DNA of 64,000 nucleotides. It comes from Oceanospirillaceae bacterium (GTDB lineage Bacteria; Pseudomonadota; Gammaproteobacteria; Pseudomonadales; Oceanobacteraceae). Shown piece after piece: positions 3,547 to 24,717 of the stretch (positions are counted from its first letter, which is position 1; each line of letters starts with the position of its first letter). The notes beneath the pieces are model-generated. The model had not been told where the DNA came from, searched no databases, and saw nothing but the letters and a program-made list of their open reading frames with translations. Both the position numbers and the translations under genes were made by a program. Location: the NCBI GenBank assembly GCA_002724925.1, contig PBQA01000016.1, positions 186,001 through 250,000 of the forward strand, read 5' to 3'.

Positions 3547-5484
3547 TCAGTTGCGAGCCGGTACCACTGATTCCACCTGAGAGAGCTGCTGTGCAAACAC
3601 GCGCTCATCAGGGTCAAGTACTGCCGTCACTTCTTTGCCCTTCAGGCTGCTGAAAATAACACGATAAGCGAGCACTGCTTTGACGTAATCGCGGGTCTCA
3701 CGATACGGGATACTTTCGATAAACTGATCATAAGCAACCGGTGCGTCCTTGAGCCAGCGATCCACTTTATGGGGGCCCGCGTTGTAGCCGGCCAGGGCAG
3801 CAATCAGATTTCCCTGGTAACGCTCAAGCAAAGAGCGCACATAGTAGCTGCCCAGAGGAATGTTAGTGCGGTAGTCCATCAGGTCGTCGTTGACGTCGTT
3901 TAGAACCAGGTTCTTTTCTCTGGCCACCTGCTTCGCCGTTGCCGGCATAATCTGCATCAGGCCACGAGCCCCGACCGGAGAGCGTGCGTGCGGATTAAAC
4001 GCACTCTCACGACGCGCAATCGACATCAGTAATGATGGATCAAGGTCGTATTCTTCAGCCCAGCGGCTGAACTCATCCTGATACGCCAGTGGGAAGCGGT
4101 GCTCCAGCAAGTTCCAGTGGCGCCCGGAAATCGTCGCTTGAACGGCGAGTGCTGGCCAACCATTCTGCTTCGCCAGCTCGGCATACACCGGCGTATCTGA
4201 CGGGTTGCGCAGCAGCGTGAAATTCCACTCATCAGCTGCCAGCCCTTCTTCGCCGATCGCCCAAAGAGCGCGAATACGGGCAACGGCGGGCGTCTCGGCA
4301 ACGGTCTCTAACTGTCCTTCCTGCAAGCTCGTTGTCGACTGCTTCAGCTCATATGGCAAGGCGAGTTTTTCTGCCGCCAGAAAGCCATAAAACTCACGGG
4401 CAGAGGCAGCTTTCGTGTAGGCGTGATGAGCAGCTTCAGATTGCCCCAGCGCTTCAAGCGCACGGCCGCGCCAGTACATGTGGTATCCCGAGTCTTTATC
4501 GCTACCCTGCACTTTATCGGTCCAGGCGAGCACGGCATCCCAGTCTGACTGAGCAATAGCTTCACGCAGTACAGGGCCAATCAGGTTGCCATCGCCCAGG
4601 TCAGTCAGGAGCTGATCAATAATGTCGGGGCGCTCACCGGCATCAAATTTATAACTGCGTGCTGCAAGCATGTTACCAATACGCTCGAGTTGAGCATCAC
4701 TCAACACACCTGCCTCTGACAGTTTTGGATATAACTCAGCGACAGTTTCGGGCTTCCGGCGCACAAGATACGCCAGAACCGCGTATCCCATGTCGCTGCG
4801 CTCAACGCCAGCAGGAAATGTTTTATCCAGGGTAAGAAGTTTTTCTGGCGACGAACGAAGCTGACGGAAGGTACTTGAAGCAACTCTCCACTCCGCTGGT
4901 AATTTTCGCAACAAATAGTCAGATAGGCTGCGGTTACCCGCTTGCAGTGCCATCACAGCACGCTGCCAGATTGCCTGTTCGTTAATTTCACCCCGGCTAA
5001 GCATCGCTTTAAACAGATCATCACATTGCTCTGGGCGCGAGCTGCCGCTCAGCCATAACTGCCGTCCACCATCAAAGGCTGCCGTCTGGTCTTTAATCAG
5101 TTTTGCACGGTAATAAATGCAACGCCCTGGCGCATCAGCGGGTGCGTACTCATTTAACGACAGTACTTCATCCCACTTTCGGGCTGCACCGTAGGTCAGA
5201 GTCGCATGACGGACAATCCAGCGCGAAAGAGGCGAATCGGAGTTCTCTGTCGCATAAGACCTGACGTCAGAGGCAGACACATCCGGCAGATTACGTTTGA
5301 TACGGTGATATTCAATATAGGGAGCAAGAACATGCTCCGAGACAGCGTCATCAACCTGGCTCCACTTACCGCTGCGGGCAGCGTCCAGAGACGTTTTAAA
5401 CTCTGCATCTGACAGCGCAAAAGTGCTGAGGCTGGCCAGCCCGACGATCAGGCCTGTAAGTACTTGCAGATACGATTTACTCAT
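3547..5484 (-). CDS. slt: Soluble lytic murein transglycosylase (Slt70-type)
   Basis: Periplasmic muramidase-type enzyme that cleaves the MurNAc-GlcNAc bond of peptidoglycan to form 1,6-anhydro ends. At 645 residues it matches Slt70. It starts with a Sec signal peptide (hydrophobic stretch ending STFALS). A long alpha-superhelical U-shaped region fills residues about 30-430, and a C-terminal SLT catalytic domain follows. The catalytic Glu lies in RRESAFNPHARS near residue 490, with GLMQIMPATAK and AGYNAGPHKV downstream, all diagnostic. It is monocistronic and divergent from the flavin oxidoreductase gene across a 217-base spacer. No anomaly seen. Confidence 0.97.
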   Translation of the reverse strand: MSKSYLQVLTGLIVGLASLSTFALSDAEFKTSLDAARSGKWSQVDDAVSEHVLAPYIEYHRIKRNLPDVSASDVRSYATENSDSPLSRWIVRHATLTYGAARKWDEVLSLNEYAPADAPGRCIYYRAKLIKDQTAAFDGGRQLWLSGSSRPEQCDDLFKAMLSRGEINEQAIWQRAVMALQAGNRSLSDYLLRKLPAEWRVASSTFRQLRSSPEKLLTLDKTFPAGVERSDMGYAVLAYLVRRKPETVAELYPKLSEAGVLSDAQLERIGNMLAARSYKFDAGERPDIIDQLLTDLGDGNLIGPVLREAIAQSDWDAVLAWTDKVQGSDKDSGYHMYWRGRALEALGQSEAAHHAYTKAASAREFYGFLAAEKLALPYELKQSTTSLQEGQLETVAETPAVARIRALWAIGEEGLAADEWNFTLLRNPSDTPVYAELAKQNGWPALAVQATISGRHWNLLEHRFPLAYQDEFSRWAEEYDLDPSLLMSIARRESAFNPHARSPVGARGLMQIMPATAKQVAREKNLVLNDVNDDLMDYRTNIPLGSYYVRSLLERYQGNLIAALAGYNAGPHKVDRWLKDAPVAYDQFIESIPYRETRDYVKAVLAYRVIFSSLKGKEVTAVLDPDERVFAQQLSQVESVVPARN

Positions 5485-23156: not shown

Positions 23157-23424
23157 TTAATACGGAGCTACTGCACCGTAGGTAACGCTTCTTTATGAAA
23201 GAAAGCGATCGAGCTTAAGCGGTGGAAATTAAAATTTTGCGACAACGAATTTAATGCGGTGTCGCATTGAAGAGAATTGGGCGTTGTAGCCCCGGGAGAT
23301 GAAAGGTTTCTGAGCAAGGCAAAACCTGAGGAAAAAGCGGAGTGTACTTTAGTACATGAGCATTTTGACAAAGGTTTTAACACCGCTCAGGAGCGTTTCA
23401 GACCCGCAATAAGAGAAGTCAGCT
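23157..23424 (+). other. Structured purH-purD spacer, candidate cis-acting RNA leader of purD
   Basis: This 268-base spacer holds many complementary arms. TACGG/CCGTA is at 23161-23180 and TGCGACA/TGTCGCA at 23238-23266. A TGTAC-TTTA-GTACA hairpin lies at 23343-23356. AAAACCT (23321-23327) can pair with AGGTTTT (23372-23378) or with the earlier AGGTTT (23304-23309). AGCGG (23336-23340) pairs with CCGCT (23383-23387), interleaving with the previous helix as a pseudoknot. The short ORFs the track reports here look spurious. No class of RNA is assigned; function is inferred from structure and position only. Confidence 0.45.
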
Positions 23425-24717
23425 ATGAAAATCTTAGTAATTGGCAGTGGTGGTCGTGAACACGCTCTGGCCTGGAAGGCTCTACAATCTCCGCTGGTTG
23501 AAAAAGTATTCGTTGCTCCGGGCAACGCTGGCACAGCGATCGAAGACAACATCGAAAACGTTGCCATCGACGTTTTGGATTTCGATGCACTGGAAGCTTT
23601 CGCGAAAGAAAACGAAGTTGGCCTGACGATTGTTGGCCCAGAAGCTCCTCTGGTCGACGGTGTGGTAGATCAGTTTGAAGCCGCTGGCCTGAAGATCTTT
23701 GGCCCTAAAAAAGGCGCTGCGCAGCTGGAAGGTTCAAAAGCATTCACTAAAGACTTCCTGGCACGTCATCAGATCCCTACCGCTGAATACCAGAACTTCA
23801 CCGAAGTTGAGCCAGCACTGGCTTACCTGCGAGAGAAGGGCGCGCCTATCGTTGTTAAGGCCGATGGTCTGGCCGCTGGTAAAGGCGTCATCGTTGCAGA
23901 AACTCTGGAACAAGCGGAAGAAGCCGTAAAAGACATGCTGTCTGGCAATGCTTTCGGCGATGCTGGTTGTCGTGTTGTGATCGAAGAGTTCCTCGCGGGC
24001 GAAGAAGCGTCTTTCATCGTCATGGTCGATGGTAAGAACGTTCTGCCAATGGCCACCAGCCAGGATCACAAGCGTGTTGGCGATAAAGATACTGGCCCTA
24101 ACACCGGTGGCATGGGTGCTTACTCTCCTGCTCCTGTTGTCACGCCAGAAATCGATGCGCGCATCATGCGCGAAGTCATTATGCCGACGGTTGAAGGCAT
24201 GGCCGCTGAAGGCAATGATTACACAGGTTTCCTGTACGCCGGTCTGATGATCGACGAGTCTGGCGCACCTAAAGTCATTGAGTACAACTGCCGCTTCGGT
24301 GACCCAGAAACTCAACCCATCATGCTGCGCATGCAGTCTGATATGGTTGCTCACTGTCTCGCTGCTCTCGAAGGTAAGCTTGATACTGAAAATGCAGAGT
24401 GGGACCCGCGCCCATCACTCGGTGTGGTTCTGGCAGCCGCAGGCTACCCGGCCGACTACCCGAAAGGCGATGTTATTTCTTTGCCTGCGGATGACGGCAC
24501 CGACCGTAAAGTCTTCCATGCCGGGACTAAACTGAATGAGAATGGCGAGGTAGTGACTGCCGGTGGTCGTGTGCTGTGTGCAACTGCTCTCGGCAACTCC
24601 GTCAGCGAAGCTCAGGCACAAGCGTATGAGCTGGTAAAACTGGTCTCATGGGAAGGTATGTTCTGCCGTTCCGATATCGGTTATCGTGCTGTAGCACGCG
24701 AGAACGAAAACGGCTGA
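23425..24717 (+). CDS. purD: Phosphoribosylamine-glycine ligase (GAR synthetase)
   Basis: ATP-grasp ligase of early purine synthesis, joining glycine to phosphoribosylamine. 430 residues, family length. N-terminal KILVIGSGGREHALAWK is diagnostic. ATP-grasp signatures IVVKADGLAAGKGVIVAET, GPNTGGMGAYSP and VIEYNCRFGDPETQP are intact. The gene follows purH after the structured spacer and is followed by two hairpins before the RetS-like gene. The start has AGAAG upstream and fits the family N-terminus. Confidence 0.98.
   Translation: MKILVIGSGGREHALAWKALQSPLVEKVFVAPGNAGTAIEDNIENVAIDVLDFDALEAFAKENEVGLTIVGPEAPLVDGVVDQFEAAGLKIFGPKKGAAQLEGSKAFTKDFLARHQIPTAEYQNFTEVEPALAYLREKGAPIVVKADGLAAGKGVIVAETLEQAEEAVKDMLSGNAFGDAGCRVVIEEFLAGEEASFIVMVDGKNVLPMATSQDHKRVGDKDTGPNTGGMGAYSPAPVVTPEIDARIMREVIMPTVEGMAAEGNDYTGFLYAGLMIDESGAPKVIEYNCRFGDPETQPIMLRMQSDMVAHCLAALEGKLDTENAEWDPRPSLGVVLAAAGYPADYPKGDVISLPADDGTDRKVFHAGTKLNENGEVVTAGGRVLCATALGNSVSEAQAQAYELVKLVSWEGMFCRSDIGYRAVARENENG

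What the first reader, a model, noticed from the sequence alone, without database searches (positions are those of the whole stretch)
23157..23424. purH-purD spacer looks like a structured RNA with a pseudoknot and alternative pairing
AAAACCT (23321) can pair with AGGTTTT (23372) or with the upstream AGGTTT (23304). AGCGG (23336) pairs with CCGCT (23383), interleaved with the first helix. A TGTAC/GTACA hairpin sits between. A separate perfect 7-bp stem TGCGACA/TGTCGCA lies upstream. Mutually exclusive helices just before a purine gene are what a riboswitch or attenuator would need. A promoter for purD could also be hidden here.
Basis: partly seen in the sequence, partly recalled or inferred. 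Interest (0 to 1): 0.62.

Follow-up and report, generated by a model that had tools for sequence, protein, structure and literature searches.

The report
Mobile hairpin repeat before purD
The folded stretch between two purine genes is not a purine sensor but one copy of a widely scattered mobile DNA hairpin, distantly like the ERIC and Correia repeats, that mostly sits right behind the stop codons of housekeeping genes.

Summary
The structure is real; the riboswitch reading is not supported. Window 23293-23406 folds into one long rod-like hairpin (z -6.5) with compensatory changes among seven purD orthologues (97.5% of cells paired, 12 doubly changed pairs). The proposed pseudoknot and alternative helix get no support; Rfam finds nothing. 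The segment is one copy of a dispersed repeat: 19 copies in this genome, 67 in one congener, present in 41 of 96 genomes sampled from the order, and in Beta- and Zetaproteobacteria and Bacteroidota records. Stems covary while internal-loop boxes stay fixed. In the genus 82 of 108 distinct copies end at the stop codon of an oppositely oriented gene; only 2 have a sense gene's stop at the other end. Empty sites, unrelated elements at one site and 2-4-bp target duplications indicate mobility. Covariance models reach E. coli ERIC (E 1e-5) and Neisseria Correia (E 2e-4). The purD copy is an old insertion, sense to the mRNA, of unproven, probably mRNA-processing function; one congener lacks it. New variant of a known kind.

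The parts
23293..23406 (+). The element: one long imperfect hairpin; folding strand is the purH-purD mRNA strand
   Evidence: z -6.53; only model hit in the window, 121.3 bits, E 9.5e-36 (R1 was built partly from it); covariation at the locus
23293..23304 (+). Outer stem 5' arm CGGG, internal loop AGA (23297-23299), TGAAA
   Evidence: pairs with TTTCA/GA/CCCG; compensatory G-C to U-A and G-C to C-G in relatives
23306..23315 (+). Stem 1, 5' arm GTTTCTGAGC
   Evidence: pairs with GCTCAGGAGC 23385-23394
23316..23320 (+). Conserved internal-loop box AAGGC, opposite AACACC 23379-23384
   Evidence: near-invariant columns in 29 copies
23321..23327 (+). Stem 2, 5' arm AAAACCT; pairs with AGGTTTT 23372-23378
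   Evidence: compensatory changes at the locus and family-wide
23333..23338 (+). Stem 3, 5' arm AAAAGC; pairs with GC(A)TTTT 23360-23366
23339..23341 (+). Conserved loop GGA opposite GA 23358-23359, beside an almost invariant G.U pair 23342/23357
   Evidence: G.U in 29 of 29, 95-98% in larger sets
23342..23357 (+). Terminal hairpin GTGTAC-TTTA-GTACAT
   Evidence: becomes GCTTAG/CTAAGT in relatives
23372..23406 (+). 3' arms of stems 2, 1 and the outer stem
23412..23427 (+). Likely ribosome-binding site AGAGAAG and purD start ATG (23425), just outside the hairpin
   Evidence: site by inspection
23163..23174 (.). CGGAGCTACTGC: probable scar of a lost second, inverted element behind purH
   Evidence: aligned to G003, which has a full antisense copy there; inference
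23238..23266 (+). The separate 7-bp stem TGCGACA/TGTCGCA; not part of the element
   Evidence: present; region z -1.46; shared only with G003 among those aligned

Best explanation
The spacer carries one copy of a dispersed, non-coding, MITE-like mobile element that folds, as RNA or single-stranded DNA, into a rod of about 115-140 nt with variable stems and fixed internal-loop boxes (AAGGC / AACRCC; GA / GA; GGA-G.U / GA). Shown: dispersal, turnover within the genus, conservation of the fold, and oriented placement right behind stop codons. Inferred: copies spread as non-autonomous elements with 2-4-bp target duplications (TA, TNA or YTAR); a stop codon can be the target and the duplication restores it, so such insertions do no harm. 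The purD copy is an old insertion in the other orientation, so here the constrained strand is the purH-purD mRNA. Most likely (inferred) it works there as a double-stranded RNA site that affects processing or stability of that transcript, or access to the purD start, as reported for ERIC and Correia hairpins, and not as a ligand sensor. My confidence is about 0.85 for the identity as a mobile hairpin repeat and about 0.35 for the RNA-processing role; the figure below is for the whole statement.
For: Many copies. Family-wide covariation, 33 of 39 pairs with double changes, 91.7% of cells paired against 67.8% in shuffles. Covariation at this locus. Behind stop codons, 82 of 108 distinct copies against 2 in the other arrangement; wider sample 30 against 13 of 60. 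Empty sites in G006 and other genera, unrelated elements at one site in genomes with identical DnaJ, a new element truncating an older one at the dnaJ stop. Target duplications TCA/TCA, TAA/TAA, YTAR in Pseudomonas-type copies of about 140 bp. Precedents: RNase III on Correia transcripts (PMC2649163), orientation-dependent effect of ERIC on upstream mRNA (PMC2229807).
Against: No mobilizer was found. In this genus the element ends and target duplications are not clearly defined; the duplications come from other genera. Nearly every copy in a genome has unrelated stems, which simple copy-and-paste would not give unless copies are old or come from outside. No expression or processing data exist for the purD copy; the fold is constrained at purD, which leaves room for a specific regulatory role.
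Confidence: 0.65

Rival explanations
1. Host-selected 3'-UTR or leader structures: the rods protect or tune mRNAs of highly expressed genes, are kept because each copy works for its gene, and mobility is incidental.
For: Orthologous copies keep pairing through compensatory change; one copy is nearly identical between G006 and G001 although its flanks are 78-81% identical; copies lie between stop codon and terminator of core genes.
Against: Patchy presence among close relatives; for most copies the better-folding strand is not the one in the mRNA of the gene they follow; unrelated stems at one site.
Confidence: 0.17
2. Single-strand DNA recombination sites of the integron attC or REP/IS200 kind: the folded bottom strand is the substrate of a tyrosine recombinase or Y1 transposase, which would explain fixed boxes, free stems and one orientation.
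For: Folding strand antisense to the preceding gene and next to its stop codon, as in attC; many genomes of the order hold an integron integrase.
Against: Element presence and number do not correlate with IntI or Y1 transposases over 96 genomes (Fisher p 0.54 and 0.84); the own genome has no IntI match; no clear copy near twelve IntI genes; direct target duplications; the attC end boxes as I know them are absent.
Confidence: 0.1
3. A purD-specific riboswitch or attenuator with a pseudoknot, as first proposed.
For: Position before purD, strong and constrained structure.
Against: No covariation for the switching helices; same element at non-purine genes; absent in G006; no Rfam match.
Confidence: 0.03

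Closest known systems
ERIC / IRU repeats (Enterobacterales, Vibrio)
   Same: Similar size, long hairpin, same inner motif GGA-G-stem-U-GA with the G.U pair; the wider model R2 matches one E. coli ERIC over its whole length, E 1.2e-5 in 46 kb, R1 its centre, E 0.008. Two of the three ERIC copies fetched also end at a stop codon (panC, afr).
   Different: ERIC consensus and ends are not shared; stems here are free; much wider distribution.
Correia / NEMIS elements (Neisseria)
   Same: Order of boxes CAAGGC, CGAAG, GTAC-hairpin, AACGCYG; R1 match E 1.6e-4 in 6 kb. A Cupriavidus repeat shares the Correia core and has stem 2.
   Different: Neisseria 26-bp ends absent, stem 2 missing in Correia; R2 does not match it and a strict whole-record search finds none. 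PMC2649163 says the repeat is known from Neisseria only.
REP / REPIN and CGTC or GTAG repeats
   Same: Extragenic palindromes mostly behind coding regions (PMC3733652).
   Different: Three to five times longer, internal-loop boxes, target duplications, no link to Y1 transposase genes.
Integron attC sites
   Same: Folded antisense strand, stop codon at the edge, conserved unpaired boxes with free stems.
   Different: Dispersed behind core genes, no integrase link, other boxes.

Membership tests
Bacterial MITE (non-autonomous hairpin element) | Short, non-coding, several dispersed copies per genome | tested here: met
   19 copies here, 2-67 in the genus
Bacterial MITE (non-autonomous hairpin element) | Terminal inverted repeats and target-site duplication | tested here: inconclusive
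   Met in Pseudomonas-type copies; not definable for the shorter copies of this genus
Bacterial MITE (non-autonomous hairpin element) | Occupied and empty sites among close relatives | tested here: met
   dnaK/dnaJ/dapB and purH/purD comparisons
Bacterial MITE (non-autonomous hairpin element) | Autonomous partner with the same ends | tested here: not met
   None found with end type ii in 12 genomes; a limited search
ERIC | 127-bp ERIC consensus | tested here: not met
   Only remote model similarity
ERIC | Long hairpin with ERIC inner loop | tested here: met
Correia / NEMIS | 26-bp Correia ends | tested here: not met
   Absent from all copies seen
Correia / NEMIS | RNase III substrate in mRNA | not testable with these tools
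Purine-related riboswitch | Match to a known class | tested here: not met
   No Rfam hit up to E 10
Purine-related riboswitch | Covarying mutually exclusive helices or pseudoknot | tested here: not met
Integron attC | Association with an integron integrase | tested here: not met
REP / RAYT | Association with a Y1 transposase | tested here: not met

The most novel reading that the evidence does not exclude
ERIC, Correia and this family are one cross-phylum superfamily of mobile hairpins defined by structure. An unknown mobilizer recognises the folded single strand through the conserved internal loops rather than through end sequences, and inserts it behind stop codons in one orientation; stems are therefore free and nearly every copy differs.
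Probability: 0.3. Interest if true: 0.78.

Novelty: new variant of a known kind. Interest (0 to 1): 0.55.

Why it matters
How ERIC and Correia repeats move, and why they fold, has stayed open, partly because each was treated as an oddity of one clade. Models built here from other bacteria reach both, and find relatives in Pseudomonas, halomonads, Nitrosomonas, Chromobacterium, Zetaproteobacteria and Bacteroidota. The fixed loop boxes, the invariant G.U pair, the stop-codon placement and the strong orientation bias are handles for finding the mobilizer. It also warns that leader-like structures before biosynthetic genes may be mobile repeats and not riboswitches.

Tried and rejected
Riboswitch or attenuator: no covariation for the switching helices. 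attC: no integrase link. Y1/RAYT link: none. Shared mobilizer gene near copies: all-against-all comparison of proteins from 80 loci gave no transposase-like cluster. IS partner with end type ii: no pairs at IS spacing in 12 genomes. Viral carrier: only 8 viral contigs hold the core pattern. Literature by sequence string: nothing relevant. CGTC/GTAG REP families: much shorter, do not match. Strict whole-record search of Neisseria and Cupriavidus records with R1: empty, so the Correia link rests on a short search. R2 did not match Correia, nor two of three ERIC copies. Laying the whole genome in the script box was not available. A first try at locating purD starts in other genomes by regular expression failed; those spacers were read by eye.

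Full report
WHAT WAS CLAIMED AND WHAT IS THERE. The dominant structure is one hairpin, 23293-23406, -48.7 kcal/mol, z -6.53 against dinucleotide shuffles; the upstream half of the spacer is not unusual (z -1.46). AAAACCT/AGGTTTT and the TGTAC hairpin are parts of this rod. AGCGG/CCGCT and AGGTTT/AAAACCT are competing pairings that do not covary.

COVARIATION AT THE LOCUS. Seven orthologous purD leaders from two genera, aligned by sequence only, keep 97.5% of cells paired (85.7% in shuffles); 12 of 40 pairs have double changes, 33 cells in all, and no shuffle of 500 reaches that number of cells. Rows are related, so the shuffles are not a probability; slid structures pair in at most 52% of cells. 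The G.U pairs seen there fit the + strand, the purH-purD mRNA strand, as the one that folds. Yet G006, in the same genus, has a purH-purD spacer of about 26 nt without any element, and G011, G013 and G014 show no element in theirs. G012 has only a copy nearer purH, and G010 and G022, another genus, carry a diverged inverted pair.

A DISPERSED FAMILY. A search with the spacer hit many other places. A covariance model, R1, built from 29 copies found 19 copies in this genome, 2 to 67 per genome in the genus, and at least one in 41 of 96 genomes of the order. Some metagenome bins may be mis-assigned. Family-wide, 91.7% of cells pair (67.8% in shuffles) and 33 of 39 pairs show double changes. The constant parts are internal loops: AAGGC opposite AACRCC, GA opposite GA, and GGA opposite GA beside an almost invariant G.U pair.

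WHERE COPIES SIT. In the genus, 82 of 108 distinct copies with enough flank have the hairpin's 3' end within -12 to +25 nt of the stop codon of a long frame on the other strand, mostly -5 to +8; only 2 have a sense frame's stop at the 5' end, one of them with both. In the wider sample the numbers are 30 and 13 of 60. Judged from their protein ends, the genes include dnaK, dnaJ, dapB, eno, lysS, ffh, serA and acnA (DnaJ read in full). In several loci an intrinsic terminator lies beyond the element. The window copy differs: it lies before a start codon and in the sense direction. Relatives also carry the usual antisense copy right behind purH; here only a short scar seems left at 23163-23174.

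MOBILITY. Behind dnaK and dnaJ, G006 and other genera have no element while five congeners do. G000 and G003 have 100% identical DnaJ but unrelated element stems at the same sites; in G003 a new element sits at the dnaJ stop and an older one, intact at that stop in G008, is truncated behind it. Copies at one site are often 90-100% identical in variable stem columns, others about 40%. One element is nearly identical between G006 and G001 although its flanks are only 78-81% identical. Pseudomonas-type copies are close to 140 bp when uninterrupted, have at least three kinds of outer repeats, and are flanked by TCA/TCA, TAA/TAA or YTAR duplicates. That the stop codon is itself the target, kept by the duplication, is an inference.

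WHICH STRAND. On the modelled strand G.U exceeds A.C 122 to 46 and 122 to 55 after removing the invariant pair. So for most copies the better-folding strand is antisense to the gene they follow. Either the sense orientation is selected against, as the orientation-dependent destabilisation reported for ERIC would suggest (PMC2229807), or insertion is directional. This is unresolved.

RELATION TO KNOWN REPEATS. R1 matched the centre of two E. coli ERIC copies, identical there (15.1 bits, E 0.008). R2, built from the wider set, matched one of three ERIC copies over its whole length (23.1 bits, E 1.2e-5 in 46 kb) and none of nine control loci. R1 matched a Neisseria Correia element over its length (19.9 bits, E 1.6e-4 in 6 kb); R2 did not and a strict whole-record search found none. 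The Correia and ERIC query sequences were recalled from memory and then confirmed by database matches. Calibration is short, so E-values are rough. A Cupriavidus repeat with a Correia-like core was found by sequence and also folds with the extra stem. The kinship is supported but distant; membership in ERIC or Correia is not claimed, because their consensus and ends are not met.

MECHANISM AT purD. Shown: a conserved hairpin, constrained on the purH-purD mRNA strand, that ends about six bases before the likely ribosome-binding site. Inferred: an effect on mRNA processing, stability or purD translation. Precedents are RNase III acting on Correia transcripts and RNase E exposure by ERIC. Not shown: transcription, cleavage or any effect on PurD.

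LIMITS. Alignments A2-A4 were fitted to the model and lean towards its structure; A1 and A5 were not. Copy counts are capped. The mobilizer is unknown.

Noticed in passing
L127 (contig labelled Pedobacter MAG), 4606-4767: Carries a typical gammaproteobacterial copy (130.9 bits), unlike the diverged Bacteroidota copies; the contig is probably mis-binned.
   Followed up: no
G000:C7:285705-288400 (L054): dnaK, dnaJ and dapB each end in their own element, three in a row with different stems.
   Followed up: yes
L116, L129, L162 (Mariprofundales contigs): Near-perfect hairpins of about 130 nt or more with the same core occur several times within a few kilobases, in L116 three times in 400 bp.
   Followed up: partly
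L066 1501-1712; L155 and L174: Some copies hold an extra hairpin inserted inside the element, enlarging it to about 200 bp.
   Followed up: no
G042: Many solitary copies of the outer repeat CAGGCYGTTGAAAAA without a partner at element spacing; nature not examined.
   Followed up: no
order-wide sample: Integron integrase genes over the curated cut-off in 44 of 96 genomes of this order, but none in the window's own genome.
   Followed up: partly
L344 and L349 (purH-purD spacers of G010 and G022): Two diverged inverted rods fill the same spacer in another genus, so this spacer seems to be a repeated landing place.
   Followed up: partly
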